DNA from: Rosellinia necatrix
Taxonomy: Eukaryota; Ascomycota; Sordariomycetes; Xylariales; Xylariaceae
Direction: 5' to 3'
DNA length: 64,000 nucleotides
NCBI GenBank assembly: GCA_021209875.1
Contig: JAGYVD010000007.1
Location: 310,001 to 374,000, forward strand
Part shown: positions 28,890-63,560 of the stretch, in pieces
Position numbering within the stretch: position 1 is the stretch's first letter
How the letters are laid out: every line of letters starts with the position of its first letter
Notes under the pieces: model-generated
The model's database searches: none
What the model saw: only the letters and a program-made list of their open reading frames with translations
What the model was told of the DNA's origin: nothing
Program-made: the position numbers and the translations under genes

Positions 28890-30782
28890 GTCAAATGAAA
28901 AAAAAAAAAACCATGATGCCTCCGTCAGCCATCCCTAGTACAAGAGAATCACGCCCAACCAGATATGCCGTGACGCCGGCAGCATTGGGGACAAAATATG
29001 AACTCCCTCCCGCGCCATGTAATGCGCAATCCCTCCTCGCCAGCCACGATACCGTACGGATGGTTTCTGGGCGTCCGAGTCGGCCAATTTGCGTCTAGGG
29101 ATCGGGCGCCATGCTGGGTCATCCAGAGAGCCCGTCGGCGGCATTTCGCCGCTGGGAGAAAAAGCCATGGTCGATAGCATGTCGATGTGCCCGAGATCCA
29201 CCTCCTTCATGGCCGCGCCAGTCTTGATGTCTCAGAGCGTCACGCGGCCATGAGGATCGGATGTTGCTATGGTTTGGCCATCCGGGCTGAGGCTAACTTC
29301 GCCCACGGCCCCCTTGCCCGGGGGCCCCCCTGTGGAAATGTCGTCGCTTCCGGACTTCCAATTAGGGGCATGCCACACATGCACATCATCGCGGCAGCAT
29401 CCACTGGCGATGGAGGAACCATCGGGTGAGAAGGCGAGCGACGAGATAGGCCGCGGCGATCGCGATGTTGCACTTCCCACCCTATGACCAGTTTTTACAT
29501 CCCAGACTTCGATGCGGCCAAGGGCGGAAATGGCCAGGAATGATATTCCCTCCCTCAGCAGAAAAGACACCGGGTTAATTGGCCCATTGCTGAGCGTGTA
29601 ACGGGTTCCGAGCTTGCCGGGCCCTATATGCCAAATCTTGCAAGTTCCATCGGCCGAGCATGAGGCTATGAGTTTGGAATCGGCTGAGAAAACGACGTCA
29701 TTAATGGCGTTGCCGTGGCCTTCAAGTGTATAGATAGGATCCGCGGCGTTTGGCTTCGTCCGCTCCCCGTCAGACTCGCTAGGCTTGTTCGCATTATTAG
29801 CACGATCCGAGACGCTGCTTTGAATTTCAGTCCCAACATTCTGGGCCTTATCCAATTCCTTGATACGCCCTTCGTTGCATATGCTATCCACCCTCCATAC
29901 CCTCACTTTGGGATCGTCAGTCCCAGTGGCTAGAAGCTGTCCATCCTGTGAGAAAACGACCAACCTTACGATTCGGCGGTGATGGATTGTTTCAAAAGGG
30001 AACTATAGGCCCTTATCGCTGAGCTTGGTGTTGTTGTCGAGACCACTAATATCCAATATGTCTACAGTAAGACCACTTGCCACAGCAAGCCTTCTCGCAT
30101 CGGCCGAAAATGCTACCGAGTTAACAGAACTATGGTAATCCAATGTATGAAGAAGCCGGCCTGTATTCGCATCCCACAGTGTTGCCGAGATCTCCGCCCC
30201 AGCCGCGACCATGCCACCTTGGGATGCCCCCCGTTGGCGTGAAAAGGCGACAGAGTATACCCAGCCGCCCCCAGTTAGTAGTGTATGTTGTGTTTTTCCT
30301 GTCTCGACGTCCCATATGCGCACCGTCCCATCGTCTGCCCCCGAGGCGAGTAGCCGGCCGTTCGGCGAAAAGGCTACACTGCGGACCCGACCTGCGTGAC
30401 CCCGAAATACACGAGAATCACGCTCCCAATACCGGTGCACTGGGCCTCGCGGCGACAGCCCCGGAGGTGCCTCGGCGATCCAGAGCTTTCGTATAAGACT
30501 TCTCTCGGGGCAGAAGACCAGGGTAGTGTACACGGGAACACCGGGTGCCTGAATAGATTGGTGGATATAGATGAAGTGCAGCGTGTCGCGGATCATCACT
30601 TGCAAAGTTGCACGCGGCGATACATTCATATCCATCAGATCTCGGGGCGTGGCGCCAGCCGCTCGTGGGAGGCCCAAATCTATCTTTTGAAGTTTAGCTG
30701 CAGCAGTAGACAGTTGGCCATGGATGACGAGCTGTTCGATCCACTGGAGGAAGTGGTTTGCGAGAAACCAGTGGAGCTTCTC
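28890..30782 (-). pseudogene. NACHT-WD40 (NWD/HET-E-like) NLR gene, 3' half: linker and WD40 propeller
   Basis: C-terminal half of an NLR gene whose N-terminal half lies at 61185-63560. The frame enters at the transposon junction with EKLHWFLANHFLQWIEQL. That segment and the later VYTTLVFCPERSLIRKLW are the usual NWD linker before the propeller. About nine divergent WD40 repeats follow: HAGRVRSVAFSPNG with VRIWD, VNSVAFSADA, VVFSQDGQLLATG with VRVWR, HGNAINDVVFSAD with KIW, IEVWD, ISSLAFSPDG with VHVWH, VSLSPDGQTIA, and STMAFSPSGE. A ~50-residue polar insert sits in one repeat. In-frame stops occur at 30003-30005 (TAG) and 29232-29234 (TGA in the WD position of TL-W-DIKTG). A frame change near 29100 leads into the probable C-terminus (RDSLVLGMADGG). 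In the family, WD40 repeats recognise non-self and NACHT oligomerises to trigger cell death; this copy cannot do so. Confidence 0.85.
30778..30782. repeat. Target-site duplication TTCTC, left copy
   Basis: TTCTC directly precedes the TGTCA start of the left LTR and recurs directly after the TGACA end of the right LTR (61185-61189). Five base pairs is the usual duplication length of LTR retroelements. Confidence 0.85.
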
Positions 30783-30998
30783 TGTCAGGCCAATAGATCA
30801 TATAGCGAGGTACCAGCTACCCTAGGGGGTAGCTCTAAAGGTATAATTATGTATATAAGAACTGAAGGCTTTTTATTTAAATAATAAGCCTAGGAATTAA
30901 TAATATTAAGTTTTATTTTTATATTTAGCTATTTATTTGTTATTTAGCTGCTATTTTATAATAATTAAACTTTATTTTAAATAATTTTAATATAATTA
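30783..30998. repeat. Left LTR of the outer element
   Basis: 216 bp, starting TGTCAGGCCAATAG. It aligns base for base with 60969-61184, allowing C/T and G/A differences. The first ~75 bp keep G and C that the right copy has lost (AGCTACCCTAGGGGG against AGCTATTTTAAAAAA). The rest is RIP-mutated, including the terminal TGACA, which here reads as about AATTA. Confidence 0.87.
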
Positions 30999-33900
30999 AA
31001 ATAGTTAATATAGTTATTTTAAGCTTATTTAAAAATTTTATTAATGTTTAATTAATTATTATATTAATATTTAGCTAAAATATTAATTTAATAATTAATA
31101 AATAATTAAATTTAGCTATAATAAAAGCTTTTAAATGAACTAAACTAAACTAAAAATAAAAATAATTAAAAAACTTTAAAATAAAGCTATTTTAAAAATA
31201 TTTAATAATAATAAAAATTGCTTTTAAAAAATAAAAATAATATTTTTTTAAACTGTTTTATTTTGTTTTAAATATAAAAATAAAACTTAAATAAAAATAA
31301 ACGTTTTTTAAACAGTTTTATTTTTTATTTTTATTTTATAAAAATAAGTTTAAAAATAAAACTATTTATATTATATATATTTTTATTTATTTTAAAAATT
31401 TTATTAAATAATAATAAACTAGCTATTTTATTATAATATAATAAAATAATATTATTATAATTATATAAAAATATTTTTAATATTAATTTTATAATAATAT
31501 TATTAATAATATTATTAATAATTTAATTAATATTATAATATTATATTATATAAATTAAATAAGAAATAAATTATTTATAAATTTTTAAAATAATATAAAA
31601 ACTAAAATAAAAATTTTAATAATTTTTTAATAAAACTTAAGCTATAAATTTATTAATTTAATTAAATTATTATATATAGTTTAAAATTATAATAAAAATA
31701 ATTTTGAAAATATATAGCGATTTTATTACAGCTGTTTAATAAATAAAATTATTTATTAAAATTATTTTTATTTTTTAAAATTAAATTTGTATATTTTAAA
31801 AAACGTTATAAAATAATAAAAAGTTTTATTTATAATATAAAATAATAATCTTTTAAATTTAATTTAGTTTATATAAATATAATATATTATAATTATTAAA
31901 AATTTAGCTATTATTTATTAAATTATTAATTTTTATTAAATATAGCTAATATTATTAATTAAGTTATAAAAGCTAAAAATATATTAAATTTTATAATTTT
32001 ATAAAAATTTTAATTAATTATATTTTTTAAGCTTAAAACTTTTATTTAATTAATTTTTAAATAAAATAGTTTAGTTTTATTTTTTATTTTAAAATTTAAA
32101 TTAAGCTTTAAATAAATAAAATTAAATTATATTAAATAAATTTAAATATAATAATATTTATTAAAAATTTTTAAACTAGTTATATTATTTAAAATAGTTA
32201 TAAAAACTTAAAACTTAATTAAAAATTAAAAAGCTTTTAAGCTAAGCTATATAAAAAAAACTTTTTATTTTTATAAAAATTAAAAATTTATTAAAATAAA
32301 TTAAAAAATATATATTAATTTTAAAATATTATTTTAAAAACTTTTAAAAATATTAAGCAAATTTTAATTTCAATTAAATTAAAAATATTTAAACATATTA
32401 TTTATAAAAAAACTTTGTTTTTATAGCTATTTTAAAATAATATTATTAAACAATAAAAAATTAAATTTAATTATTATTTTTATTTTTAATAATATTAAAA
32501 TATAAACTTATTATATAGTTTAATTATAAAAACTTATTATAAAAATTAACTATTTTTAAATTAATTAATTTTAAAAACTTAAAAATTTAAATTTAATTAA
32601 AAACTTTTTAAATATTATTAATTAAAATATATTATTAATTTAAAAATATAAAAATATTTTTTAAGCTTTATATATTTTTAAATAAAAAAATAATAAGTTT
32701 TAAAAATATATTAATTAAGTTTTATTTAAAAATAAATTTATTATTTAAATAGTTTAATAAAAACTTTAATTTTTTTATATATAAAATAAAAATAAATTAT
32801 AATTTTATATTAATTATAAAAACTAAATAAAATATTTAAAAAAACTAAATTTTTTATTTTTAATTATAAAAATATTAAACTATTTATTTAATTTAAAAAT
32901 ATTTATAAAAATTAATTTAAAAATATATATTATTAGCTATATTTTTATAAATAAAAATAAAAACTGCTTTGTATATAAAATATAATTATTTTAAATATTT
33001 AATTATATTATTTAAACTTATTAACGCTTTTATAACTTTTTAACAATATATTAACTATATATTATTAAGTTTTATTAATAATTTTATATAATATATTTAA
33101 ATAATATTATTATTTATAACTAAAATAAAACAACTTATATTTAAATAGTTTATAATATATTTATTAAACTATATTTATAAAAACTATATATTAATTTAAA
33201 AAATATAATTAGTTTATAAATATTATTTTGTTTTTAAAGTTTATAATAATTTTAAATAATATTTTAATAAATAAAAACAAAGTTACAGCTATTATAAAAT
33301 AGCTCTAGCTTTATAATATTTATAATATTTAAATATTTTTAAAATTTATTAAATTTTACTGCTGTTTTATATAAAAATAATAATTTTTAATAATATTAAA
33401 AATAATAATATTTAATAATATATTATTTTAAAAATTATAAAAGCTAGAGCTTTATTATTATATATTTAATATTAAGCTATTAATTATTTTTATATATTTA
33501 AATAATAAAAGCATTATTTTTTTATTTTTAATATTAAATTTTAATTTTAACCGATTATTTAAACTATAACTATTTTATTATAAAATTTTAACTAAATATC
33601 AAACAAGCTAATTAGTTATAAATTTTAATAAAATTTAATTTTAAAATAAAATATAAACTAAACTGTTAAAATTTTGCAGATAAGTTATTTAAACAATTAA
33701 ATTATAAAAACATAAAAGTTAAACAAGAAGCTTATTAAAAATATTATTTTAATTTTGAAAAAGTTTAAAATAATATTAAACTTATAAAATTAAACTTTTA
33801 TAAAAACTAATTTCATTAAAAAATATAATAAATTAGCTAGTAATTTTAAAAATATTAAATATTTTTTAAAGCAGTGTTTTTAAAGTTAAAGCTTTTATAA

Positions 33901-34341
33901 ATAGCTGGGGGTTTATAGTAAAAAAATTAATAAAACAGACAGCTTAAATAAAAAAATAAAATAAAATATTTTTGTTTGTTTTACTAAGTTTATAAAATTA
34001 TAAAATAATAATATAAAAAAAAGCTATGTTTAATTTATTAAAATTATAAACAGTTAATTATAAATTTATAAGCTGCTTATAATAGTTTTAATAACGCTAA
34101 AGCTTTTAAATAAATTTTTAATTAATATTATAAAAAATATAACAAGCTAACAAATTTATTATTTTAAAAAATAAAAACAGCAATAAATTAAAAACTTAAA
34201 AGCTAAGTTTTTATAATAATTAAAAAACAAAATATTATAATTTAAAAATTATATATATATTTTAAGCTTAAACAATTTAATAAAAAACTATTATAAAACT
34301 ATTATAATATTTTTATATTAAAATATTAAAACATAATTAAA
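30999..34341. other. A+T-rich interior, no gene
   Basis: RIP-like DNA between the left outer LTR and the nested gypsy element. No frame or domain relic was recognised. A few GC-containing islets such as AGCTAGAGC (about 33300-33450, in both orientations) hint at older repeats. Confidence 0.6.
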
Positions 34342-34528
34342 TATAAAGCTATCTCTAAGAGGAACCATCTCCCGTTAGAAACCTTTTTTCGGGAAGCCTT
34401 CCTTTAGGAAGCTTTTCTCGGTAAAGCTTTTCTTTTTAAAAGCTTTTAAGAATTGCTGTATATTAGTTATTTAAAAATAAATAATTAAATTAAATCTTTA
34501 TTTTTTTTTAACTTTTTAATGCCTATTA
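34342..34528 (+). repeat. 5' LTR of the nested gypsy element
   Basis: Contains CATCTCCCGTTAGAAACC and CGGGAAGCCTTCC, G+C-retaining where the 3' LTR has A/T. It pairs with 44941-45126 over its full length. It begins TA and ends TA, as expected if TG...CA ends were RIP-mutated. Confidence 0.78.
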
Positions 34529-37500
34529 TATAGTAGCTAACAACTTTAATTGATTTTTTTCTTTTTTTTTTCTTTTTATACAGAACGGTTAGCTTTTCAG
34601 CAGACTTGTTTTTTTTAAATATATTCTGCTTAATTTAGTTAAAAATACGTTTTTTTTATTAAGCTTGATTTTTAGCTGCTTTTTTTTTTTGTATTAAAAT
34701 ATTTGTTTTTTTTATTCCGACAAGCTTTAGCTTTTTTTTTTTTTTTTAAATTATCGTGTTATTATTAAACTTTTATAGTTTGTTATTAATAAACTTTTAT
34801 AGTTATTAGTATTAACGTGTTATTTATAAAACTTTTAATAAAACTTTATAATTTAAATATAAACGCGTAATTTAAAAACAACATATAATCTAAAAATATT
34901 TCTTATTTGCAACATCTGCTTTTATTTTGCTGTAATAGCAGCTTATTTTTTTTATAGTTTTATTTTTATTAATAAAAACTTTTTAGTTTTATAAATTTAT
35001 TAAAATTAACAGAATATTATTTTTATTATTAAATAGCTGTTTTTTTAAAACAACTATATAATATTTTAAATTTAAAAAATAGATTAGTTATTGTTTACTA
35101 GAATTTTAAACTTTAATTTTAAATTTAATAAGTTTTAAAACTTTTACTATTTTTTTTAAAAAAATATAATAAAATTTAAAAGCATTTAATTTAAATTATA
35201 CTTAAAAAATAAATAATTAATATATATAATGCTTAATAAGCTATAAATAAAACTAACAAGCTTATTTTATTAAAAGCAGTTATATATAAACTTTTTATTC
35301 TATTGTTTAAATAAATCTATTTAAACTTATTTTTTTTAAATTTTAAAGTTAAAACTATTTTTACGTTAAAAGTATTAAAAAATATAGCATTATAAAGCTT
35401 AAAAAAACAGACTTTTTTTTTGTTTATATTTTTATTATTTTTATTACCCGACCTGCTACTACTACTACCCCTACTTTTACTACTTTTAAACCTGCTTTTT
35501 TAAGCATTATTTAATAAAAATTTCTAGCGTTATATAATAAAAATAACTATAATAATACAGGTTTTTATATAAAATAACAACGTTAGAAATATAATAAATA
35601 ATATATTTAAAGCAGCTAATATTATTTTTAAACGATTAGCTTTTATATTAAATAATAATTAAGCATAAAAAATTTATTTAGTTAAATATTTTTATTTTAA
35701 CTTATTAAATATTTTTAATACAAGCGATTATATTATAGTTAGAAAAAATGCTTATTAAAAAAATGTTTATTTTTTTGCAGCTTTAATAAAACAAAATGCT
35801 TTAGATTTTATTAAAATAAAAATACTACAAAATAACTTTTTTTAGCTATTTTAAAGCAACGTTTAGCTTTAATATATAAATATATTAGATAATTTTATTA
35901 AAGCAACAATAAGCGCTAGTTTTAAATATATATTAAGCAAACTTAAAATAAAATATTATAAAAACACTGCAGACGTTATTAAACAAACGTTTATTTATTT
36001 TTATAATAAACAGCTAATATTACAAAAAATACTAATTTAAATATAAGCTATATTTATAATTAGAAGCTGTTAAAACTTAAGTTTTATTTTAAATATATAG
36101 TTCTGTAATTATATATAAAACTAGTTTTATTTAAATTTATAACAGCTATATAAAAAACTAATAGTATTTATTAGCTTAAACTAATTTTTTAATTACGTTA
36201 AAAAAAAACCAAAAGCATATAAAATTATATTGCTGCATTATAATAAAAAAAAAAAACAACTTTTTTTTTTTATATAACTTTTTTATTTTCCCCTTGTTAT
36301 TAAAACTATTATTCCTTCGGCATAAAAATTAATAAACAATGCTTTTTTTAATTAAAAAAAAAATTAACAAAACAGCAATTTTATAGCGCAACATAGTCGC
36401 AGAAACTATAAAAAAACTTATAAAAGCTAAAAACGTTTTTAAAACTATAATAATATATAAAACTATAATAGATTTTAAATATATAATAAAATTTTTTTAT
36501 AATAACTTTAAAAATAAAAACTATACGTTAAATATAAAACGTTATATTATTTATAAAAATATAAAAAATTATAATAAACAAAAGCGTAAAACTTATTATT
36601 AAGCGTAAAAATTATTTAAACAAACATTCTGCAAATAAATTTAATTATAACAGATTTTAAAAAAGTTATGCTAATATTAACAATAAAATATTACTACTTG
36701 TCGACAATAATTAATTAAAAGCTTAAAAACAGAACTTATTATAGCATAAATATATTATAATAAAAAAATTAAAAAAAAACTTTTTATTAAATATTTTAAT
36801 AAAAAAACTAAAAAAAATAATACTGCTTATCCGATTTTTTTTAACGTAAATTTATTAAATATTTAATAAAAAAAACTAAACGCTATATAATACCGTTATT
36901 ATAATACGTAATTTTTAAACAAAACTGTTTTTTTTGTTTATATAATCAAAAAGTAATACATAACATAAAAACTATTGTTGCAGTTATTAAAAAATAATTA
37001 GTTTAAGCTAAATAAAATAAAAGCTTTTTTAGCCGATAAAATATTCGATATAATATATATAATATTAAACAGCACTTTATATAATAAAAAATAGCATTTA
37101 ATAAAATATATATATTTTTAATTACAGGTTATAGTTAATAATATAAACAAAATTACTACAGTATGTTTTAATACCGGCTGTTTTATAATAATAATAATAT
37201 AAAACTGGCTAAATTAATTTATATTATATATAAAAAAAATACAGTTTAAATCGCTGATAATAGTAAATAAAGTTAGAGGCTTAGTTATTTTTGCAAAAAA
37301 AACCTAATTTTAGCTAAATATTGCCGGAGAAATAAACTATATATTTAAATTAAAAGTTTTTTAAATTAAAGCTTAGATTATAAATAAATTAAAGCTAAAC
37401 TTACTGCTAAAAACAGACTTTATAAATATAAATAAAGCTATTATTAATTTTTATAAAAATTAGTTATATTTAAAAGCTATAATAATATTGTTATGCTTAT

Positions 37501-38329
37501 AAAAATTAGTACTAAAAACAGCTAATAAAACAACATGTTATAATAATAATTAATATTATAATACTACTGCATATTATAATTATAATATTAGTTGTTTATA
37601 TTAATTTTTATAATAAAATAGCGATAACTTTTATTAGGATTATATGTTTATATTAATAATTATAAAAGCATTAAAAACAATAATATTTTTTACAAGCTTA
37701 AAAACTGTTTTTTTTATTAATTAAACTTATTAAAACATTATTATACAGCGAAAAACGTAAATAAACATAATATTAAATTGTTAGAACAATAATTATATAT
37801 ATATTATATAAAAAAAATAAACTTAGTAGCAGCTGCATTAATATTAAAAATCTATAAATAACTTTTATATGTTATAAAAGTTTAATATATTTAAAAAACT
37901 TTTGTTTTATTTAAAATAATTAAATAATTTAATAATAACATTTAAAATATAATAAAATATATTAAGTTTAATATATTTAAAAACTATTTTTAAAACGCAA
38001 AAGTTTAAATTAATACTTTATATAAAAACTAAAAACAGAGTATATATATATGCTTTAAATAATATATTTATAATAAAGCTAAAAACATTTTTAAAAAAAC
38101 ATAAGATCTGGCAAATAAAAAATATTATTAAAATAAATAAAAATAATATAATATAAATAGACTTAGTTAACAGATAATAAAATTAAATTTTTAATATAGC
38201 AAAGCTATATATACTAAAAATTAAAAATTAAAAAATCGCAGATAAATAGTTTAAATTTATATATTAAAATAATAAACTTGATTTTATAAAGCAACTAATA
38301 TTATTTAAATGCCCGATATTTATTATATA

Positions 38330-38770
38330 ACGTTATATAAATAATAAAAAAAAAAGTTAAGTAATAGTAGACTTTTAATCGCTAAACAAGATTATTATAT
38401 TTAACGCTTATTTATTGCTAATATAAAAAACTATTATAGCTAGACTTAAAAAATGCTAATATATTATAATAGTTAATTATTTTAAATTTTTTTATTAACT
38501 ACTAATATAGTTATGCTATCGAAACAAAATAGTTATTATTTTTTTAAAAAGCTTTTATATATTTAAAGTTATATTAATAAGATTTAAAAATAGCTTAAGC
38601 TATATTTAACGATTTATAAACAATATTTTTATATTATACAGCTGATTTACAGCTAGATATATCGATAACGTTGTTATATTTTTAAAAACTATTAACAAGT
38701 ACTACAAGCATATTAAAAATTTTTTTTAAGTGTTTAATAATATTAACTTTAGTTTAGAACTAATAAAGTT
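38330..38770 (+). pseudogene. Reverse transcriptase relic of the nested gypsy element
   Basis: Frame from 38368 reads VVDF*SLNKIIIFNAYLLLI, the decayed form of the gypsy RT block VVD.R.LNK....DAYPLP. Further on, codons at 38652-38690 read ARYIDNVVIFLKT, in which the second catalytic Asp of YIDD has become Asn (a G-to-A change). The following residues resemble the usual gypsy spacer. Interrupted by many stops. Confidence 0.75.
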
Positions 38771-41700
38771 TTTTATAATATATTTTGCAGTAAAACTATT
38801 AAATTTTCTAATAAACAGCTTTAGTTTTATAATTATTAATAATTAAATTAAAGCTATTTAAAAATTTAAATTATTAATAACTTTTATAAACTTAGAAATA
38901 TATATTAAAATAATAAAATTTTTATAAAAGTTTATTTTATAATATTAACAAAAGCTTTTATTATTATAAAAAAAAAAAATAAAACTATTAATAAAAGCTA
39001 GAACAGCAAAAACTATTTTTAAAACAATTTTAGCATAACAGCGTTAAACAGTAAAAATTATATTTAAATTAATTAACTTAAAAATTTAAAGCTTTAAAAT
39101 TATTTAAAACCAGCTTATAAATATAAGCTATTTTAAACATTAGAACTATAAAAAACAGTTTTTTATTAAGCTTAATATTTTTTGCAAGCAAAAATATAAA
39201 ATAATAGCTTTTTATTTAAGCTTTATATAAAATAACAAAAAGATTTTTGTTAATAATATTAAATTTATTTTATTTTTAAGCAAAACTTTTATATAAGAAA
39301 AAACAATTTATTAATTTATTAAATCGGAAGTATTTATATTAGTTTAAATATATTATTAATTATAAGCGCAGATATAATTTTGCGTACTATTAATAGTAGT
39401 ACTAACAGATTATTTTGCTATACAGAGCATTATAAAATAAACAAGCTTAAAATTAGTTAATATTTTAAAATTAAATATTAAATTAGTAACGGCGTTTATA
39501 TATTTATTTTAATTTTAATTAAATATTTATTATATATTAAGTTAATTTAACCTGGTGCTAAATGCTTTTTTAAAATTACCGACGGCTTATAACGCCGATA
39601 ACGCTATTATTTAAAATAATAAAAACTAAAGAACTTTTAAAAATGTTATTAAAAATTTTAGTTATATTGCAGCTATAGAAATTAAAATAAATAACATTTA
39701 AAAAAAAAAGCTTATTTAAAGCTACAAAAAAAACCTCTGCTTTGCTAAAATAATAAAAAAAATAAGCAAATAATATAAAAAACAACTGCGGCAAATATAT
39801 AAGTATTTAAAAGAATTAGTTTTTTATTATAGCCGGCTATTAGTTTATTTTTTATATAAAATTTAAAATAAATTATTTTATGCAACAGATATTTAAAACA
39901 AAATAAAATTATATATTCCAGCTAATTATTAACAACAGCTGTTATAAATAGCATATAATAAAAAATATTATTTTAGTTTTTAAAAATATATTATAAACTA
40001 TAAAAATTTATTATTTATAAGCTTTTAAAATAAATTTTTAAATATATTTAATACTGTTTTTAATGTTTTAAATATATAATTAATCAGCAGAAATTATTAA
40101 AAAAATTAAAGCTTATTATAAAACTATTATAGTTATACTATATTATTATAATAGATTTTATTATTAGTTTACTGAAAGTTTTAGCAATAAATATTTTTTA
40201 AAAAATAAAAAGTTATATAGTTTATAACGCTTTTATGCCGGTTATTTATAAATTTTTTAAAAAAATATTATTAATACTTAAAAACGTTATATATAAAGCC
40301 GAAAAATAAGCAGAAGTTTTTATACTTATATTATTACTATATAATTAAAACATGCTAGCAAAAATTATTTTAAATAAAAACTTAAAATTTATATTTAAAT
40401 TTTAGCAAACTTTATAAACTAAAATAAATATATTGCTAGAAATAATAACAAGTTATTATTTTTAAACTAATAGTTAAAGCAAAAACGTAATTAAAATATT
40501 AAAATTATTATTTATTATTATATTATATTTTTTAAAACGTTATAAATAGATATTATTTTAATATTATAATATAATTTTAATAATATTAAATTAATAGCAG
40601 TAAAAAGAAGTTTTAACGAAGTAGTATTAAGCTTTAAACTATAAAGTTTTTTATTAATTATAAAAATATTTTGCAAATTAATTAATTTTAATTTTACTGC
40701 TAATTATATTAAAAAATATAAAACAGCAATTTAATTTGCGGCAGCTAATACAAAAATCTGTTATAATATTAAACATAATTTAATTTAATTTTAAATAAAT
40801 AAAAAATTTTTTATATTTATATAAAAATACTACCTGCTTAAGAAACCCCGCAAAAATAATTATAACAACGGACGGAACTATTTATTATACTGCAGAAAAT
40901 AAATAAACTAGCATATAAATTAAACTTTTTTAAATATTAGCGCATATATTAAGTTATGTTTATCGTATATTTATTTTTAGCGCCGCCGGAACTAGACTTT
41001 TTTAACCGAAAAAAAAAGCGTTTTAAGCGTATATACGTTAAAAAAAACACAAATAATTTCGTTTTTTATAAAATTAAAACTATATTAGCTTAACAGATTA
41101 ATAAAACCAGCAAACATTTAATATTAAAATACTTTATTTAATAAAAAGGATATAAAGTTTTATATAATAAATAATATTTTAAAACATTATTTATATAAAA
41201 CGCCGCTGAACTAATAAAAGCTTTCGATAAAAAAAAACCAGTTATTTTTAAAAAAATATATATTAAACGCGTTAAAAAAGCAAAACTTATAACAGAAATA
41301 ACAAGCGATTAATAACAGATAAAAACTATTTTAATTATTAATATATAAATATTACTGCGTATAGTTTATAACTTATAATAAGTATATTTAATCTATTTAT
41401 TTAGGTCGTTTATTCGGCTTATTTTGTTTAACGCATATAATAGCAATTATTTATTTACCCCGGTTTTTTTTAAACATATAATATATTACACGTAAAACTT
41501 TTTTATATAAAGCTTTTTTTTTTTTACTTATTAAAGCTTTTATTTTTTATTAATATATACTATTTTATTTATTATTTAATATTTTAGTTTATTATTATTT
41601 TATAAACATATTATAGTTTATATTATAATTTATTATTTTTTATAAATATATTATTTACGTATTTTTTTTATTTAAAATAGCATCCGCGGAAATAATCCGC

Positions 41701-44700: not shown

Positions 44701-44940
44701 TTAACTTTTATTTTTTATATAAATTTTATAAAAACGCTTTTTATAACGCAGATAATACTTTTTTTTTTTTTTAGTTTGTTTTTTTTATAACGCATGTTTT
44801 TTTTTTTTAGTTTATATTTTTAGCCGTTTTTGCTTTTTTAATAATAATAATCGGCCATATTTTTTTTTTTTTTATGTTTTATTATTTCGCCGGCCTTTTA
44901 TAATCAATAAAATCGTTAATATCTTCGTATAAAAAGCAAT

Positions 44941-45126
44941 TATAAAGCTATTTTTGAAAAAAACTATCTCTTATTAAAAACTTTTCTTTAGAAAGCTTTT
45001 TTTTAAAAAGCTTTTTTTAGTAAAGCCTTTTTTTTTAAAAGCTTTTAAAAATTGCTATATATTAGTTATTTAAAATAAATAGTTAAATTAAATCTTTATC
45101 TTTTTCCAACTATCTAATGCCTACTA
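44941..45126 (+). repeat. 3' LTR of the nested gypsy element
   Basis: Aligns with 34342-34528; most G and C in the 5' copy have become A and T here in the first third. It is followed by TTAAA, as is found before the 5' LTR. Confidence 0.76.
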
Positions 45127-46239
45127 TTAAAATTATTAAAAATTATAGTTAATTATTTTTAAAAAGCTTATTTAAAAATATTTAAAAATATATTATTATA
45201 TATTTAATATATTAAAAATTAAAGCTAAAATATATTAATTTTATAATAAATTAAATTTATTATTAATATTAACTTATTTTTTAAAAAAATATTTTATAAT
45301 TTTATTATAAAGTTATTATTTTTATTTTTAAACTAAAAAACTTGCAATAATATATTAATAATAATAAACTAGCTAAACAAATATATTTTTATATTTTTAT
45401 TATTATTAAATTAATAGCAGCTGGGCTAATAAATTTATTATTTGCTTATATATTTATTAAATATAAAATATTTTAAAAGATTATTTTAAATAAAAGCTTT
45501 ATATTTATTAGTTATTTTAAGCTATATTATATTACCGGCTAATTATTAGCAGAAAATTAAACACACCTTTTTATTTTTAAACAAATAGTTAAACAAAATA
45601 ATAAAACTAAGCTTTAAAATATTATTTATAAACTTTTAATTGTTTTAAACAGATTAATCAAGCTAAAAAATTAATAATAGCAAAATAAGTTTATAATATA
45701 TTAATTTATTTAGCTTCTAATATAGTTTTATTTAAAATATTATTTAGTTTTTTTTAAAAGTATTTTTAATTAATTTATAAAACTTCTAAAGTATAATTTA
45801 AAAACAGCTATAAAAAAATAACTTAAATTAAATAAACTTATTAAATAATATAGCAGCTGCTAAAATATAATAATTAAAAATATATTAAATAATATAATAA
45901 AATAAGATTACTTTAAAAATTTAAAATTAAATAATTAATTATATTATTTATTAAAAATATTAATTAGCAGCGACTTAATATTAAGCTAGCAAATAAATAT
46001 TTAAGCTTTTTAAAATATTAAAACTAATAAAAAATAAAATAATAGTTTATAAGCTAGAATTATTTTTAATTTATAAAATATATAATGTTTTTTAATTAGT
46101 TTATTTAAACTATATTAATAACGCAGCAAAACTTAGCATTTCTGTTTTAAAAGCTTATAGCAATTTAAAAAAAAATATTATTATATTAAAAATTTTTTAA
46201 AAGAAAAAAATATTTAATAAAATAGCAAGGATATATTAG
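45127..46239. other. A+T-rich interior, no gene
   Basis: RIP-like DNA between the gypsy element and the solo LTR. Nothing recognisable was found. Confidence 0.6.
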
Positions 46240-46425: not shown

Positions 46426-46447
46426 ATTAGCAATAACAATTTTTAAA

Positions 46448-52100: not shown

Positions 52101-55100
52101 AAAGCTTGTTTTATATATTTTAACAGCTTTTTATATAAAAATAATATTTTTAAAATTTAAATATTATTAATTAAAATAAATTAAATTATAATTTTTTAAT
52201 ATATTAATTATATACTAATATAATTATTTTTTTATATAGTTATAAATTATTTTAATTTTTAAAAACTAAACGATATTTTTTATTTTTAAGCTTATAAGCT
52301 TTTTAATCTTGCTAATAATTTTTTAGCTAATTTTTATTGTTTTTTTATATATAATTAAAAATTGTTTATATAAAACAAAATAAATATTTTATAATTTAAA
52401 ATATAAAATAAATATAGTTTTTATTAAATATAATTAGTTTAAAACGTTTTAAAATATTTAAAAATTTATTATATTATAATAATAAAAGTTTTATAGCTTG
52501 TATAAAGTTTTATTTAATAATATAGCTTTTTTACTACTTAAAACTATTTAATATTAAATATATAATAAAAGTTTGCTGCTGTTTAAAATATTTAAAAATA
52601 TTAATATTATATTAAACTATTTAATTTTTAAGTTAAAATATATATTAATTATTATTATTACTTAAAAAAATTTACTGTAAATATTATAGTATATATTAAT
52701 TAAAATATATTTATTATTTATAAATTTTTTATATAATTAGCTTTGTTTTATAAACTTTTAAAAAAATTTTTATTAAATTTATATATAAACATTTATTTAA
52801 ATAATAATAGCTTGTTTTTATTTTTTTATTAGAACTATTTTTATAACTTTTTTTTATATTGCAAGCATTTTTTTATATGTTTTTTTTTAAAAATTGTTTT
52901 AAAAATAATTTTAAGTTTTTTTATTTTATAAAAGTTTTTAATAAAGTTATTCTAATATATTTAATTTTTAAACTAATTTTTAATTAATTAGCTTTATATT
53001 ATTATATTATAGCTGTAAATATAATATATAGTATTTTATGCTTGCAATCTTTAAAATATAAAGCTTTTATTTGTTTTAAAAAAAATGTTTTTTTAAAAAT
53101 ATTTTATTTATAATTTTTTAATAAATTAATCTCTAGCTTTATATATATTATCATAATAAATATTAAGCTTTTTATATTATTTTTAGCTTTTATTTAGTTT
53201 TTCGCGCTTAGTTTTACGGCTTGATCTGCTTATAAATAAAAATATTTTATATATATATTTATATTTAAGTTTTTTCTAGCTTTTTATCGCTTGTTTAGCT
53301 AATTAAAATTAGCTTTTTGCTGGCCTGCTTAATAATCAGCGTTTTTATTATTATAAAATTTATAATATTTTTAAAACGCTATAAATAATTATTTTTTTCG
53401 CGTGTTATAATTATTTTATTTTTAAAGCTTTTTATTAAAATTATTTTTAGCTTAAAAGTTATCTTTAAAATAATAAGTTTTTGCTGCTATATTTAAAAAG
53501 CTAATTTTTAGCTTAAAATCTGCTCTGCTAATATATTTATTTTTAACTTATATTTATTAGTCTAGCTAACCAGGCTATAAATAAAAATGTTTATAATATT
53601 TTTTATATTTTTAAAAGCTATATATAATATATCTTTAAGCTTTTATTTATTATTTATTTTATGCTGCTATTTATTTATTAAATTTAAAGGTTTTAGTTTT
53701 TTACTGCTGTTTATTTAATTTTAATAGCTAGTTTTTTTATTTTTAAAATAAAACAATATTTTATTAAATTTAATATTTTTATAATAATTATTTTTATAAT
53801 TAAAAACTTATACACGATATAAATTAATTATTTTATATTTAATTAAATATTTAATATAAGCTTAAGGTTTAATTTTATATATTTACTGCTTTTTAGCAGC
53901 AAATTTTTTTATTAAATATATGCAATATTTATATATATATATCCTGTTTTAATCTAATTATAAATTATTTATTAACGTTTTTATTTAAGCTAGGTTATAT
54001 TATTAGTAGTATTATATTAATTAATATTTAAACATATAATAAAAAACGTAAAAATTCTAAGCTTTAAAAAAGCTTTTATTATATAATTAAACAGCTGTTT
54101 AAATTACTTCTAGCTATAGTTTTAATAATAAGCCGGCTTTATTTAATAATTTATTTATTTTATCGATTATTTTTTTACTAGCTTATTTAATATTTTTAAC
54201 AGGCTTTTTAATATAAAATAAAAAAGCTTATTATTAATCTTTTATTTTTAGCTAAAGCTTATATTAAGTTTTATTTTTACAAGCTATTATAAAATATTTA
54301 AATCGCTTTTAATAATATAAATTATACGCTTATAATATTTTTTATTTAACGTATAAATTATTTAATTTTTAAAAACTTATATAATTGTTTTATTTATTAA
54401 AAATATATATAAATTAACTTTATATATTTATTTTTAATTATTAAAGCTAAGTTTAATTTATTATATTTTATTAAATAATTAAACAGATTTTAATATAGCT
54501 TTTAAAAAATTAAACAGTTTTTTATTTAAAAATCGTTTAAATATTTATTATATTATATATATAATAATATATATTTTATATTTAATATATAAGATTTTAT
54601 TAATTTATATATTTTTAGCTATATATATTAATGCTTATAAAGCATAGCTTTTAAATATTTTAATTATTAATACTAAAAATTTTAGAGTTTTTTTAATTTA
54701 AAAATTTTTAAAATAGCTTATAAGCTAAAATATATTAAAATGAATTAAATATAATTAATTTAATAGTATTTTTAAAATTATTTATAATATTTTGCTTATA
54801 TTTAATATAAAGTTTTTGTTTAAATATTAAAAATTAAGTTTATATTTAAAAAACTAAAGTATAATACTTAATAAATTAAGCTATTAAAACATTATTTTTA
54901 TATTTTTAAAACGTAATAAATAATTAAAACTATAATACTAGATTTTTTTTAATTAAACAAACTTTTAAAATAATATTTATATAAAACTTTTTATTAACGT
55001 TATATTAATAAATATTATATTTATTAATAAGTTTTTTAAAACTAAATAATAATTTTAAATAATTTTTCTGCTTCTGCTTAAAATAAAAAACTATAAAATG

Positions 55101-56319
55101 CCTACGTAAACTATATTTTTATTTTTAATTAAAATAAAAATTTAAGTTTTAATAGCTTTTATTATGAATTAAATATAATGCTTTATAATTATTAATTAAT
55201 ATATTATTTATTAAAATATATTTTTAAATCTAATCGTAAAAACATCTTTAAGTTACTAGCAATTTTTTTAATAAAATTAAAATAGTTCGATTTTTATTAT
55301 TAAAATTTATTATATTATTTAAACTATTGTTTTTTTTTATTAACTTTTTAATTTAAATAAGCGATTTTATTCTGTAAGTTTTTATAATATATATAAAACT
55401 ATTGTTTTTAATTTTTTAATTTTTATAGTATTAGTTTAAATTTTGTTAATTTAATATATATTAATTTTATTAATTATAAACTAAAGCTTATTATAAAATT
55501 TAAAAGCTAAAATAAATATTTCTAGCTTTATTTAAATATAAGCATTTATAATTTTTAGCTAGCTAAATTATTTTAGCACGTTTTTAAGCTTTACTGTTTT
55601 AATATATTATTATATTAGCTAAAAATCCGTTTTATATTTATTAACCTGCCAAGCTTGCAAATATTTTAAACTTATTTTTTTTGCTTTTTAACTTATATTT
55701 ATAAATTATAGCATTAAAAATCTTGCTATACTTTATTAAAATAAATATATTTTTTTAATAGTTTATATTTAATTAATATAATAAATTATTAACGTTTTTA
55801 ATTAAGCGTTATATAAACATTTACTGCTGCTAAAAATTTTTGCTGCAAACATTTTATTTATATTAAAAAGCTTTAAAATTACTGCTTTTTAATATATTTG
55901 TTTTATTTTTATATTATGTTATTATTTTAATTTTATTTTTAAAAGCTTTAGCAATAATTATTTAATACTTTTATTAAATAAAAAAAAAAAAAAATAAAAC
56001 AAGCAAAATTATATTATATAAAATAAAAATTAAATTTTTAAACCTAAAATTAAAGTTTTAATATTTATATTAATAATAATTTTTATATATATAATATTAA
56101 TTATTTTATTAATTTATTTATATATAGTTATATAATACGCTTAAAAATAAGCTTTATTTTAAAACTAAATAAAATATTCTGTTTAAACATTTAAAATTTT
56201 AATAGTAATTTTTGAAATAATAAGTTTAAAAATATTAAATATTAAAAAGTTTTTACGGTTAAAATTTCTATATAAAGCTTTTTATACGTGTATTTTTTAT
56301 ACGTTGTATTTTTTTTAAG
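49128..56319. other. A+T-rich segment between the long direct repeats
   Basis: About 7.2 kb of RIP-like DNA without open frames. A short patch at 49133-49196 keeps more G (for example GACAGAGGTGTGG and CTGTGGGAAG). A CTG/CTA triplet tract lies at 50165-50290. Small coding-like islets occur, possibly on the - strand near 53200-53560, but none can be named. It may be the body of the outer element or of an element bounded by the repeats. Confidence 0.55.
50165..50290. repeat. CTG-rich triplet tract
   Basis: Runs of GCTGCTGCT with interspersed CTA and CTT, unusually G+C-rich against its surroundings. A shorter sibling run lies at ~50595-50615. On the - strand it would read as a Gln- or Ser/Ala-rich stretch, common in retroelement gag proteins, but no frame supports this. 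Confidence 0.75.
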
Positions 56320-59007
56320 GGCCTAAAGCGAGCTTGCGAGCGTAATAAAAATTGCGAAAAGGTGAGAGTTATAAATAAAAAAAACCAGACGTGCGGATAA
56401 AATAATTATTTAGCTTATGTTTTATTGTACAGGTTAACTTTTTAGTAGTTAGTTTCTTACTTTTATATAAACAGCCGAAGGCTGTTTTTCCGGACTGGCC
56501 GTATTTATGTTTAAATTTAGTTAGGGATTTATATCGCGTAGCGCACGCGCGTAAGTGCAGTCTGCCGTGTAAAGCCTGCAGAGCTTACGTATATTATAAA
56601 ATCAGATATATTATTAAATATATTTATTAGGACTTATATAAGTAGTAAAATTTAAGTTATATATTATATAACAATAATAATTTAGCTTAATACTTAGATA
56701 AAAAAATATTATATTAGCTAATATATTTTTATAATATGTTAAAATAATTTATATAAATAAGTCTGCATAACTTTTTATAAAATAATATATATATATATAT
56801 TAAATAAACCTTGTAAAAGTTTTTTGTTTTATATATATATATATGCCAAGCTATTAATATTATATAAAAACCTGCATATATATTAAATAAGTTTATAACT
56901 TTTGTTTTATATAACAAGTTTTATATATATTTTATTTAGCTTTATTAAAAAAAACTTTTAAAATAAAAGTTTTTAATAGGCCCTTTAGAAAAAAAAACTA
57001 AAGCTTAAATAGTTTATTAATTATAATATAACTTTTTATAACTTATTATAAAACATAAAACTATTTATAAAAAAATTTTTAAAGCTAATATTTTATTTAT
57101 ATAAAAATTTAAATATTTTTTTTTAAATTTTATAAAAGCTTTAAAATTAAACATATATAGCAATATTTTTTAAAAAACACTAGCTAGCAGTAGCAGATTT
57201 AATAATAAATTAATATTTGTTTTATTATTTAAATATTAAATAAAAATAACATTTAATAATCTAAATAAATTTTTATATTATAAGTTTTTTTAAAACATAA
57301 TTATACTTTTATTTTTAAAAGCTTTAAAAAATATTATTTTTATAAAGTTTTAAATATTTTATATCGTTTTAAATATTATATTTAAGTTAATATTATTTTA
57401 TATATTATTTATATATAATTTTAAAATAAACAAAATTTTTAATTTAATTTTTTTTTTTTTTTATTTTTATTAAAACAATATTTTTAATATTTAATTATAT
57501 ATTTTAAAATCTAGTTTATAATAACTTTATAAAAATAATCTTTAGCAAAATAAATCTGTTTAAAATTTTTAACAGCAAAAAATACGTTTTATTATTAATA
57601 AAAACGTGGCTATTTATTAAAGTTTTTAATAAACATGCTTTTTTATTTATTTAAAATGCGCTAAAATTTATAGAATTTTTTAAAATAATTAAATAGTTTT
57701 TAAATAATTTAAACTTAATTTTATTTAACACTTTAATTTTAAAATTTAAAAACATAGTTAATATTTTTATTTTTAAATATAAATTAAACTAAAAGCAGGC
57801 TTAACAAGCTTTTTAATTTTTATTAATATTTATAATACAGAATTATTAATATAAATATATAAAATATTATTAATATATTTTTATAATATAAAATATTAAA
57901 ATAGTTGTTAATATATAGTTTATATTTTACTATATAAAAGTTAGCAATATTAAAAAGCAGATAATTTTATAGCCAGTTTTTTATTAATAAAAATATTTTA
58001 AGCTATATTTAAATATAAAATAATTATTAGTAATATTTACAAATTTATTTGCTATTTAAGCTTAATATAGTCTTATATAACGTAAGTTGTTATATTTTTA
58101 TATTATATATTTATATATTTTTTAATTAGTTTTAAAAAATATTAAAATAATATACTACTATATTTACAATTATTAAAAAATATGTTATAATTATATTATT
58201 AAAAATAATAACGTTATATAAAATTGTTTTAATAACGTAATAATTTATATATTATTATTAATTGCTTTTTAAAATGTTTAAATAAAATTTTAATAGCTAG
58301 GTTATATATAATTTTATAGCAAAAATAATAAATTTAAAAATAAAAAGTTTTTATAAATTTTTAATAGCTTTATAAACATAAAAACTTATTTTTATAATTT
58401 TAGCTTATTAAAAAAGCTTTTTTATTTTATAAAATTTAGCAGATATTTTAATAATATATTAACAAAAGCTTTTATTTTGTTTTATATAATATTGTTTTAA
58501 ATAAACGTTTTAATTATTATAATTTTTTAAAATTATTTTTATATTATTTAAATATTTTTATAATTTTATAATATTAGTTTAAAAATATTATTATTATTTT
58601 TAAATTTTTATTAAATGCTATAGCAAAAGTTTATATTTTTATAAATATTTTTAAATATTATTTAATTTTAGTTTATTTTAATAAACTAAAAAACATTATA
58701 AAACTTATTAATCTGTTTTATAAGTTTAAATCGTTTTTTTTAATTTTTATTTTATATAATATTTTATTTTTTTAAATTAACTGTTTGTTTTAAAATATTA
58801 AGTTTTAAATTATATAGTTTTACAAATAGTTTATTAATTCTAGCTTTTATTTAATTTTAGTTTTAAAATTACTTCAGGCTTTTAAATAGTTTATTATTTT
58901 TAGCTATATAAATAAAATATTTATTTTTAATACTAAGCTATTTTTATTTTAAAAATAATAATATTTTATTTAATATATAAACTTTTTAACTAAACTAAAC
59001 GCTAATA
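56320..59007. repeat. Long direct repeat copy B (~2.7 kb)
   Basis: Begins GGCCTAAAGCGAGCTTGCGAGCG. It is collinear with copy A over its whole length, and its first ~300 bp keep more G+C (GCGTAGCGCACGCGCG, GAAAAGGTGAGAG). It is therefore the least mutated copy of this family at its left end. Both long copies stop at the same place, so they are complete copies of one unit or a segmental duplication. Confidence 0.85.
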
Positions 59008-60094
59008 AAATAATTATAAGCATTTTAATTAAAAGTTTAGTTTATATATTAGCTAATAGTTTAATTAAAATGCTGTTTAAAAAATAAAAAAATATTATAC
59101 CTGACTTTTTTTTTAAAGCTTATTTTTTAAGTTTGCTTTTTATTTTTTTAACGTTTTTTAAAGCTTTAAGTTTTTTTTTTAAAAGCGTTTTTTTAAGTTT
59201 TTTTTTAAAACTTTTTAATAGCTTTTTTTTAACGCCTAAATATTATTAGCATATTATTTTTAAAATAATATATTATATAATATTTTATAAATATATAAAT
59301 TAACGTTTAATTTTTTTATAACTTTTTATTTATAAACTTATATAAGTTTTTAAAATAAGTTTATTTATTTTAAATTTTTAACTTTTAATAAATAACAACT
59401 TTAGCAAAAGCTTTATTAAGCTTTACTATATTTTTATATAAATAATATTTATTATTTTTAAACTAAAATAAATAGTTTATTTTTGCTTATTTATAGTTTA
59501 CGTTTAATTAAAATTTTTTAAAACAGGTTATAATTTTATTTTATTTTTATTTATATAATTATAAACATTTTAAAATATTTTTTTATTATATATTAAAATA
59601 ACTTTATAAAATATTTTTTATTTATTATTTTAAATTAAAATAAATTTTTAAAAAAATACTTTTAATTTTTATTATTAATAGTTTTTAAAAACTATTTTTT
59701 AAAAAGTTTAAAAGTTTATTAATAATAATATTAAATATATTTTTTTAATATTTTTAAAAGTTTTAAAATATTAAAATTTTAAGTTTTTAATATTTTTAAT
59801 TAAAACAGAAATATTTTATTTATTTTATATGTTTATATTATATAAAAGTTTTATTAACTTAACTATATTATTTATATATATTAACAAGTTTAAAAATAAA
59901 AATTTAAAAGCTTTATAATATATAATTAAAACTATTTTAATGTAGTTTTTATTAATATAAAATATAAATATAAAGTTATACATTTTGTTTATATTTAATT
60001 TTGCAACAAAAAAATAATAAAAAAAAAAAATTAAATTAAAAAGCTATTATAAAATAAAAATATAATAATAAGCAATTTTTATAAATAAAATTTA
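59008..60094. other. A+T-rich interior, no gene
   Basis: Unique RIP-like DNA between copy B and copy C. It starts with a foldback (TAAGCATTTTAATTA near 59014 pairing with TAATTAAAATGCT near 59071). Nothing else was recognised. Confidence 0.5.
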
Positions 60095-60376
60095 AAAGCT
60101 TAAAACAAGCTTGTAAACGTAATAAAAATTACAAAAAAATAAAAGTTACAAATAAAAAAAACCAAACGTACAAATAAAATAACTATTTAGCTTGTGTTTT
60201 ATTATATAGATTAACTCTTTAGTAGTTAATTTCCTACTTTTATATAAACAGCTAAAAGCTGTTTTTCCGGACTAGCCGTATTTATATTTAAATTTGGTCA
60301 GGGATTTATATTATATAACACGCGCGCGCGGGTGCAGTCTGCCGCGTGGGGCCTGCAGGGCTTGCATGTGCATATG
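60095..60376. repeat. Short truncated copy C of the long repeat
   Basis: Matches the first ~280 bp of copies A and B (AAGCTTGTAAACGTAATAA, ATAAACAGCTAAAAGCTG, GTGCAGTCTGCCGCGTGGGG). It keeps the G+C-rich end CGCGCGCGCGGGTGCAG better than either. It then stops abruptly at the AAT microsatellite. It is truncated relative to A and B. Confidence 0.82.
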
Positions 60377-60377
60377 A

Positions 60378-60968
<591 letters not shown>

Positions 60969-61184
60969 TATTAAACTAATAAATTATATAATAAAATACT
61001 AGCTATTTTAAAAAAGTAGCTTTAAAAATATAATTATATATATAGAGACTAAAAGCCTTCTATTTAAATAGTAGGCCTAGGAATTAATAATATTAAGCCC
61101 TACTTTTATATTTAGCTATTTACCTGCTACCCAGCTGCTACCTCATAGTGACTAGACCTCACTCTGGGCAATCCTAACATGACA
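60969..61184. repeat. Right LTR of the outer element
   Basis: Partner of 30783-30998. Its first half is RIP-mutated. Its last ~100 bp keep normal composition (ACCTGCTACCCAGCTGCTACC, then GACCTCACTCTGGGCAATCC) and end CATGACA, the inverted complement of the TGTCA start. TTCTC follows. Confidence 0.87.
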
Positions 61185-61189
61185 TTCTC
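61185..61189. repeat. Target-site duplication TTCTC, right copy
   Basis: Identical to 30778-30782 and directly abuts the terminal TGACA of the right LTR. Confidence 0.85.
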
Positions 61190-63560
61190 TTGGATACCGG
61201 TGTCTTGGGATGGATCCAATACCCAGCCGAGGTGCGTGATCCAGTGTAAAAGAGAATAGCTTGTCGTGGTTGTTTCGGCTCTGGGGCCGCCAGCCAGGAT
61301 GCTTCCAAGATAGTCAAGACGTCTTTAGGTTAGCTTTGAATGTCTTTCAATGATCTCCGAATGGTCAGCTGTGTATCCTCGACTATGTGCCTAGGCGAAG
61401 GGGTGCAGGAGCCAGATCTAACCTCCTATATCGCGGAGAAAGGCGGAACATTTTCGCAGGATGTGGTTGATATCCATACGCTTGCCCAGATTTAGGAGAT
61501 GTTCGAGTTCATTAACTCGTATTGGCCCATGAAGAAGCGCGATGGTCGAAATTACCCGGGTGCAGAATTTCTCGTCTCTATACGGGAGGGATATGAGCTT
61601 CCAATCCATGTACTCATACAATTCAAGAAGGCCTTCACATCTTTTGATACCTTCTATCACATCTGAGGCATGCAACGCCTCATCAGCTCGTAGCACTACA
61701 CACACTATGTCCACCCACAAGTAGTTCCGGAACGGTCGTTCGAGAAGCTTTCCAGAGATACAACGCTCTAGCTCATCATCGTAACGCTTCTCCTTGGCGA
61801 GTTCTTGAACACTGGTCTGAATATAATGCATCTGGCTGAAGCACGAGCCAGCTAAATTACTTTCAAGGTCCAAGTGCAGGTAGCGCTTTTTATCTCCTGT
61901 TCTCCCAATAAGAGAGTTTCTGAACGCAGCATCGCCACCACGGCCGCTCTCAAAGGAGACCAGCCAGCGGATCTTGTCTGACAAGGCGAGCGATTGTGTG
62001 ATAATAAACAGAAATTCTTCTATTCCCGGCCAGTTAGAGCTTGCTTTGTTGAAGCATTGGTCAAGAGCACCAACAACCAGATACGTCTCTTTGAACTCGC
62101 CATCTTCGATCATATTATAGAAGACCGCCGAAAGTGCAGGGAAATCTCTGGGGTGGTGGAAAGCATCGCGGTTGGTTGAAGCGAGTTGGTTGGTGAGGTG
62201 TCGTGCTAGCTCGGGTTGAGCCTCGAGTATGAGCCATATAAGACTGCGGAGAGCGGTGGCCGGGTGATTGTCGTGAGGGCGGTTATGATTAAAGAAGAAG
62301 AACGACAGCTGACGAGAATCGCGTAACCCAGTGTGCACTTTATCGGTGAGTAGCACCTGCACCATGCTAGTTAGAAGGATCGTCTTACCCTGCCCCGGGC
62401 CGCCGCTTATACACAACAATCGGTTTACGTCGTCAACTTTCTCCCAGTCAATAAAGAGCCTGTATTGCGTCGAAGAGAGCAATGTATAATAAAATCCAAG
62501 TAACAGGTCATCCTTATCATGCATCTGTAGTGAATGGATGTTGTGACGGGGATCGGCTATACCGAGCTTTTCGAGCAGTTCTCTTCGCAATTTAGAATCG
62601 GTCCTTGACGTGAACGCGGTTGAATAGGGGCAAGACACGTCCCGCAGCCTCTACAGCCTCGACACCCCTACAGCGAATTTCTAACGCGCTAGATATGGTC
62701 TTGTTTGAGACACCGAGATCGCGATCCGAAAAGTGGACGCATACTGTAGCAATTAAGTATGAAAGCACAGCTTGGTAGAGGGAGAGTATCGCTTCCTGAA
62801 GCTTAGGTTGGCGTTGTTGGCGATTGTCCCCCTCCTTGGCCGCCTCCCCTAGTGTCATCTTTGATAACCAGCAGTACCACTCAAGTCGTTAAATGATATA
62901 GAGAACACCTTCGCAGTCTCTCTCGGCTGCTTCCGTCGGGTGTAGAAAGAGCTATTGAACCCCGTCAGCTTTAAACTAGCCAGACATGCTTTACGCTACT
63001 GATCGCCGATTGCAACGCGTGCATAGGTAGGTTAGGTAGATTAGGTAGGTCGTCCTGCCTTTTCTGCGGCATAGCAAGCCACAACCCACACAAGAACGGC
63101 GTCAGCTGGCGTTGGCTCGATACAGCCGCAGAGTATATCCTGCAGTGGTGTGCTTAGCTCGGCCGCGACGTCATTGCCAGCACACGAATACTCTTGCTTC
63201 GTTTCTACTCCTTTAGCGAGCCAGAGGTTGAGGATATTCTCCATGTTGGATCGACGCGTCTGAGACGAGCTCTGGTTGATCGGGCTATCGTTGACCTCAG
63301 ATAGGGGCGCTTGTAGCGGGATGTCCGGAACGGTTGGCTATAAGTTACAAGACGATATTGTCTCAAACCATGATATGAGCCCTGGGTTCTCTGTTTGCAG
63401 CGTCTCGTAGACCTCGTCCCAAAGGAAGTTCGATATCTTGGAGCTGGCTACTAACGGTTGATCAGATGATCCTTTCTGGCTTTCCCTGGCTTTCGATGTT
63501 GCTGATTTCCCTCCACCCGTCCGCTTGTGCGGCTCGCCCTGATCGACTTGCGTGGAAATT
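61185..63560 (-). pseudogene. NACHT-WD40 (NWD/HET-E-like) NLR gene, 5' half: N-terminal region and NACHT domain
   Basis: N-terminal half of the NLR cut by the transposon. From the 5' side: SSKISNFLWDEVYETLQ (near 63450-63400), the typical NWD N-terminal start; PADAVLVWVVACY (near 63090); RLEWYCWLS (near 62880); LQEAILSLYQAVLSYLIATV (62800-62740). The NACHT frame spans 61418-62638, with P-loop GGPGQGKT at 62404-62381 and a Walker B-like strand YLVVGALDQC (usual family form DALDEC, so two acidic positions are altered). After its stop at 61418-61420 the NWD helical region continues in other frames: IVEDTQLTIRRSLKDIQS, then RLDYLGSIL...LLHWITHLGWVLD up to the junction. Defects: TAA at 62889-62891, a frame change near 62600-62640, loss of the expected HQSAKDFL segment, and TAA at 61325-61327. 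Some breaks could be undetected introns. Non-functional as it stands. Confidence 0.85.

What the first reader, a model, noticed from the sequence alone, without database searches (positions are those of the whole stretch)
28890..63560. One NACHT-WD40 NLR gene split by a 30.4-kb nested transposon with exact target duplication
The left gene end (- strand) starts EKLHWFLANHFL and the right end finishes LDPSQDTGIQ. Removing 30783-61184 and one TTCTC joins them in one frame, in the linker that precedes the WD40 propeller in NWD proteins. LTR ends TGTCA/TGACA and TTCTC on both sides fit a single retroelement landing. It appears to record the loss of an incompatibility or immune-type receptor by transposition, in a strain where other isolates may keep an empty, intact allele.
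Basis: partly seen in the sequence, partly recalled or inferred. Interest (0 to 1): 0.88.

Follow-up and report, generated by a model that had tools for sequence, protein, structure and literature searches.

The report
Immune-receptor pseudogene split by nested retrotransposon
A fungal immune-receptor gene is cut in two by a retrotransposon that other transposons later landed in, but the gene carries many other damaging changes, so the transposon may not be what killed it; this is an ordinary kind of gene death.

Summary
A minus-strand NACHT-WD40 (NLR) gene from 63559 to about 28900 is interrupted at 30783-61184 by a unit with TGTCA/TGACA ends, a 215/216-bp LTR pair and TTCTC on both sides. 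Both halves, searched apart, have the same best relative, an uninterrupted Rosellinia necatrix protein; two further relatives also run through the site. The insert family is real: 45 solo LTRs and 6 longer LTR pairs were found in the same genome. A 6.7-kb copy elsewhere shows that the 30.4 kb is one such element with a second LTR element and a further nest inside it, mostly mutated by RIP.

The gene also has a lost start codon, seven stops, an out-of-frame deletion and a rearranged 3' end. Three stops and the start loss look like transversions, against one transversion in 216 LTR columns, so decay may predate the insertion; the order is not settled. No other isolate could be compared.

A by-product is a RIP edge effect: in 12 of 12 outer LTRs of the six long copies the outer 55-60 bp is far less converted (left 11/198, right 28/168 sites) than the inner end (130/168, 146/196).

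The parts
61190..63559 (-). 5' half of the NLR pseudogene (NACHT_N region and NACHT ATPase region)
   Evidence: tblastn to P0002 residues 1-784; Pfam NPHP3_N 78.2 bits, cut-off 24.8; NACHT_N 20.6 and 55.1 bits in two pieces, cut-off 30
28900..30782 (-). 3' half of the NLR pseudogene (linker and WD40 region)
   Evidence: tblastn to P0002 residues 779-1292 and P0142 residues 793-1364, 1521-1616; Pfam WD40 88.2 and 76.2 bits, cut-off 27
62952..63061 (-). 110-nt stretch without protein match, probably the gene's intron
   Evidence: P0002 residues 166/168 and P0142 residues 177/179 abut across it; splice sites not tested
62595..62599 (-). junction of an out-of-frame deletion of roughly 90-100 bp
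   Evidence: P0002 residues about 287-317 have no counterpart and the frame changes; P0142 likewise lacks a match for 298-322
30778..30782 (.). target-site duplication TTCTC, left copy
61185..61189 (.). target-site duplication TTCTC, right copy
30783..30997 (+). left LTR of element A
60969..61184 (+). right LTR of element A
30998..34341 (+). element A, first internal piece
   Evidence: collinear with 6.7-kb copy L061
45148..46230 (+). element A, second internal piece (may begin at 45127)
   Evidence: collinear with L061
60470..60968 (+). element A, third internal piece, after an (AAT)n run
   Evidence: collinear with L061, L062, L063 and the two large nests
34342..45126 (+). nested LTR element B; LTRs 34342-34528 and 44941-45126, flanked by TTAAA at 34337-34341 and 45127-45131
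   Evidence: 187 columns, 34 transitions, 1 transversion, 2 gaps; TTAAA on both sides (weak in AT-rich DNA)
46231..60469 (.). further nest, unresolved: repeats 46531-49131 and 56403-59012, and terminal-like repeats near 46.5, 56.3 and 60.1 kb; about 1.07 kb of element A is not found here

Best explanation
One fungal NWD-type NLR gene (NACHT_N, NACHT, WD40) has become a pseudogene. An LTR retrotransposon (element A, 215-bp LTRs) integrated once between the codons for IQ and E in the linker before the WD40 region and made a 5-bp TTCTC duplication. Other elements then landed inside A, and RIP converted most of the nest to AT-rich DNA, giving 30.4 kb. Shown: one gene, one landing with duplication, nesting, C-to-T type mutation, and at least nine further lesions in the gene. 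Inferred: the integration mechanism from the anatomy. Not settled: whether the insertion was the first lesion; I lean towards the element having landed in a gene already in decay.
For: Exact junctions and duplication. LTR pair with transitions and one transversion. Same best relative for each half searched apart, P0002; three uninterrupted relatives run through the site. 45 solo LTRs and 6 long pairs of the same family; duplication exact in 29 of 35 solos and 5 of 6 long pairs. Full 6.7-kb copy collinear with the pieces in the window. Only one copy of the gene in the genome; next NACHT relative 32% identical. Further lesions.
Against: No reverse transcriptase, integrase or other transposon domain was found in the 6.7-kb copy, read in pieces in six frames (heavy RIP makes this expected). 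About 1.07 kb of A is missing beside the inner nest, and the 35-kb copy on C1 has the same related element at the same (AAT)n edge, so A may not have arrived empty. One of 6 long pairs and 6 of 35 solos lack an exact duplication.
Confidence: 0.93

Rival explanations
1. The insertion itself killed a working gene; the other lesions came afterwards.
For: The insert separates the ATPase region from the WD40 region. Four of the seven stops are of the C-to-T / G-to-A type that RIP beside the insert could make, two of them (61420, 61327) within 235 bp of it. The gene has not diverged faster than its relative: 25 against 53 private changes with outgroup P0003, 49 against 60, p 0.34, with outgroup P0142.
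Against: Three stops and the start loss look like transversions and two changes are deletions or rearrangements, none of which RIP makes; LTR pair has one transversion. GC of the flanks is 0.45-0.62 up to both junctions, so little RIP leaked out.
Confidence: 0.35
2. A arrived together with part of its nest as one larger unit, rather than being enlarged in place.
For: The window copy and the 35-kb C1 copy share a related 4-kb element joined to A's (AAT)n run by the same edge sequence.
Against: The left flanks of that element differ between the copies; an element that prefers (AAT)n runs would give the same junction; 6.7- and 7.1-kb copies exist without it.
Confidence: 0.1
3. Two unrelated genes or an assembly join.
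For: None found.
Against: Same best relative for both halves, three uninterrupted relatives, exact duplication, single-copy halves. Raw reads are not held.
Confidence: 0.02

Closest known systems
NWD-family pseudogenes of Podospora anserina (PMC1805685, passages seen)
   Same: NACHT-WD40 receptor genes found as pseudogenes; NWDp3 lacks a start codon, lies beside a transposon relic and is thought to be split; NWDp1 and NWDp2 are killed by RIP
   Different: NWDp3 was split by a proposed 60-kb inversion, not by an insertion with target duplication; here the gene body itself is not AT-rich
het-v V1 allele of P. anserina (PMC9262711, passages seen)
   Same: a transposon cluster occupies an incompatibility locus in one allele
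   Different: there five genes are replaced and the allele was tested by genetics; here one NLR gene is interrupted and nothing is tested
Rosellinia necatrix 'putative heterokaryon incompatibility protein R' (P0002)
   Same: best relative of both halves, 76-81% identity in the long blocks
   Different: uninterrupted, but Walker A reads GQGTT where the window has GQGKT and its last residues match the window only weakly in another frame (E 0.027)
crapaud LTR element of Podospora (PMC10787394, passages seen)
   Same: full copies show RIP, solo LTRs mostly do not
   Different: different element; the passages seen do not describe spared outer LTR ends

Membership tests
NWD-type fungal NLR | NACHT_N domain (PF17100) | tested here: met
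   55.1 bits in one piece (cut-off 30), 20.6 in the other
NWD-type fungal NLR | NACHT-type ATPase with Walker A | tested here: met
   NPHP3_N 78.2 bits, cut-off 24.8; NACHT 26.3, just under its cut-off 26.7; GQGKT present (motif name recalled)
NWD-type fungal NLR | WD40 repeats at the C-terminus | tested here: met
   88.2 and 76.2 bits, cut-off 27
NWD-type fungal NLR | role in incompatibility or immunity | not testable with these tools
   no assay; the relative's name is an annotation
HNWD / het-D, het-E type | near-identical tandem WD40 repeats | tested here: not met
   no tandem array in 28890-30782 or 61190-63560
LTR retrotransposon | TG...CA LTR pair in direct orientation | tested here: met
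LTR retrotransposon | fixed-length target duplication, many copies, solo LTRs | tested here: met
   29 of 35 solos and 5 of 6 long pairs exact; 45 solos found
LTR retrotransposon | reverse transcriptase and integrase genes | tested here: inconclusive
   no transposon domain in L061, 18 pieces; heavy RIP
LTR retrotransposon | primer binding site and polypurine tract | not tested
   -
RIP | C-to-T and G-to-A changes confined to repeats | tested here: met
   63 of 64 substitutions between the LTRs are transitions; 12 LTRs against one solo LTR
RIP | RID methyltransferase gene and sexual-cycle dependence | not tested
   -

The most novel reading that the evidence does not exclude
RIP in this fungus stops short of the ends of a repeated element. 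The same 215-bp LTR sequence is little mutated where it abuts foreign DNA and mostly mutated some 100-200 bp further in, on both ends, in 12 of 12 LTRs of six long copies (outer 11/198 and 28/168 convertible sites, inner 130/168 and 146/196), while 35 of 35 solo LTRs aligned are nearly unmutated (at most 15 transitions). Element B, nested in A, shows the same polarity. This would give the distance from the homology edge at which the RIP machinery starts, read from one genome.
Probability: 0.55. Interest if true: 0.5.

Novelty: new member of a known kind. Interest (0 to 1): 0.3.

Why it matters
It is a clean, checkable case of an NLR gene taken apart by a retrotransposon in a RIP-active fungus, and a reminder that the visible insertion need not be the killing event. 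The by-product, a mutation gradient at the ends of repeats, could be measured genome-wide and would bear on how RIP recognises homology.

Tried and rejected
Relative-rate test: with outgroup P0003 the window gene seemed to have fewer private changes than P0002 (25 against 53, p 0.002); with the closer, full-length outgroup P0142 this vanished (49 against 60, p 0.34). I draw no conclusion from it.

Species: MCM4 from the genome has its best-scoring named relative in Xylaria sp. FL1777 at 92%; the library is clustered at 90%, so the family Xylariaceae is likely but the species is not identified.

Transposon class: no Pfam transposon domain in L061. The inner nest 46.2-60.5 kb was not resolved. 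The 5 left and 30 right LTR ends without a partner were not examined.

Papers: for 'RIP spares repeat edges' I ran the searches and looked for edge or boundary terms in PMC4858203 (none), PMC7296669 (which says RIP leaks outward) and PMC10787394; I found no description, in this library only. For NLR genes hit by transposons.

Full report
Where it lies. The window is C3:310001-374000 of a 49.1-Mb, 12-contig genome. MCM4 places it near Xylaria and Nemania.

The gene. Reading the minus strand, the right half carries NACHT_N and NACHT matches and the left half WD40 matches. Searched apart, each half has P0002, an R. necatrix protein of 1331 residues, as its best relative: E 1.7e-228 and 3.4e-254. 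P0002, the metagenome protein P0003 and the Nemania protein P0142 run through the insertion point without a break. The genome holds one copy; the next NACHT match is 32% identical.

The insertion. Pairing the 56 left and 81 right LTR ends gives 45 solo LTRs of 213-219 bp and 6 longer pairs of 6.7, 7.1, 9.1, 30.4, 35.3 and 38.8 kb. The duplication is exact in 29 of 35 solos fetched (four of the six others differ by one base) and in 5 of 6 long pairs. A comparison that tolerates C/T and A/G changes lays the 6.7-kb copy L061 onto 30783-34341, 45148-46230 and 60470-61184. Between these lie element B (34342-45126, TTAAA on both sides) and an unresolved nest. GC inside is 0.10-0.15 in the 5-kb blocks measured, against 0.45-0.62 in the gene halves.

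The other lesions. Where P0002 has its start, the window reads ATT. Stops stand at 63340, 62891, 61420, 61393, 61327, 30005 and 29234; roughly 90-100 bp are missing near 62598 with a frame change; and after about 29.2 kb the frame shifts and some 156 residues of P0142 are missing before its C-terminus matches again to 28900. Taking relatives as the ancestral state, three stops and the start loss are transversions. Against one transversion in 216 LTR columns (432 bases of LTR), the chance of so few if both clocks started together is 0.067 with three events and 0.023 with four. This assumes ancestral residues and no gene conversion between LTRs, so it is a hint only.

The edge effect. Against one solo LTR (C1:3500715), the 12 LTRs of the six long copies have 11/198 convertible sites changed in the outer 60 bp on the left and 28/168 in the outer 55 bp on the right, but 130/168 and 146/196 at the inner ends; outer is lower than inner in 12 of 12. 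Copies were found by their outermost 25-27 bases with up to 3 mismatches, so those bases are favoured, but the bins beyond them are not. Between B's LTRs the left keeps G/C in 23 of 26 differing sites in the first half and the right in 6 of 8 in the second half. Solo LTRs are known to escape RIP (PMC10787394, passages), and a length limit for RIP is stated in PMC1805685 (passages). In Neurospora RIP is said to leak outward (PMC7296669, passages).

Verdict. A real, ordinary event: an NLR pseudogene with a nested LTR insertion. Close precedents exist in Podospora.

Noticed in passing
window 30783-61184 and G000 copies on C1, C2 (two), C10, C11: RIP edge effect: outer 55-60 bp of the outer LTRs little converted, inner ends mostly converted, 12 of 12 LTRs.
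   Followed up: partly
G000, 45 places, 35 fetched: Solo LTRs of 213-219 bp are nearly unmutated while the long copies are AT-rich at their ends and through most of their length.
   Followed up: partly
L061 1-370 and 7081-7500: The 6.7-kb copy of element A lies between two parts of a PF09994 (alpha/beta hydrolase-like) gene: profile 179-286 at 97.5 bits and 111-143 at 16.2 bits, the latter under the cut-off.
   Followed up: partly
window 18587-27083, + strand: Pieces of a highly reducing polyketide synthase (KS, AT, DH, KR, ACP domains) in several frames; introns or decay not examined.
   Followed up: no
window 1-6200: Another AT-rich block; 1-5513 matches in inverse orientation a stretch of the 38.8-kb nest on C2.
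   Followed up: no
P0002: The uninterrupted relative has Thr for the Walker A Lys and a C-terminal tail that matches the window weakly in another frame; it too may not be functional.
   Followed up: partly
window 60340-60500 and C1 copy: The same related 4-kb element abuts A's (AAT)n run in both copies with the same edge.
   Followed up: partly
window 31001-60900: Remaining C bases in the AT-rich nest are mostly before T (1050 of 1972), often in AGCT and AACT.
   Followed up: no
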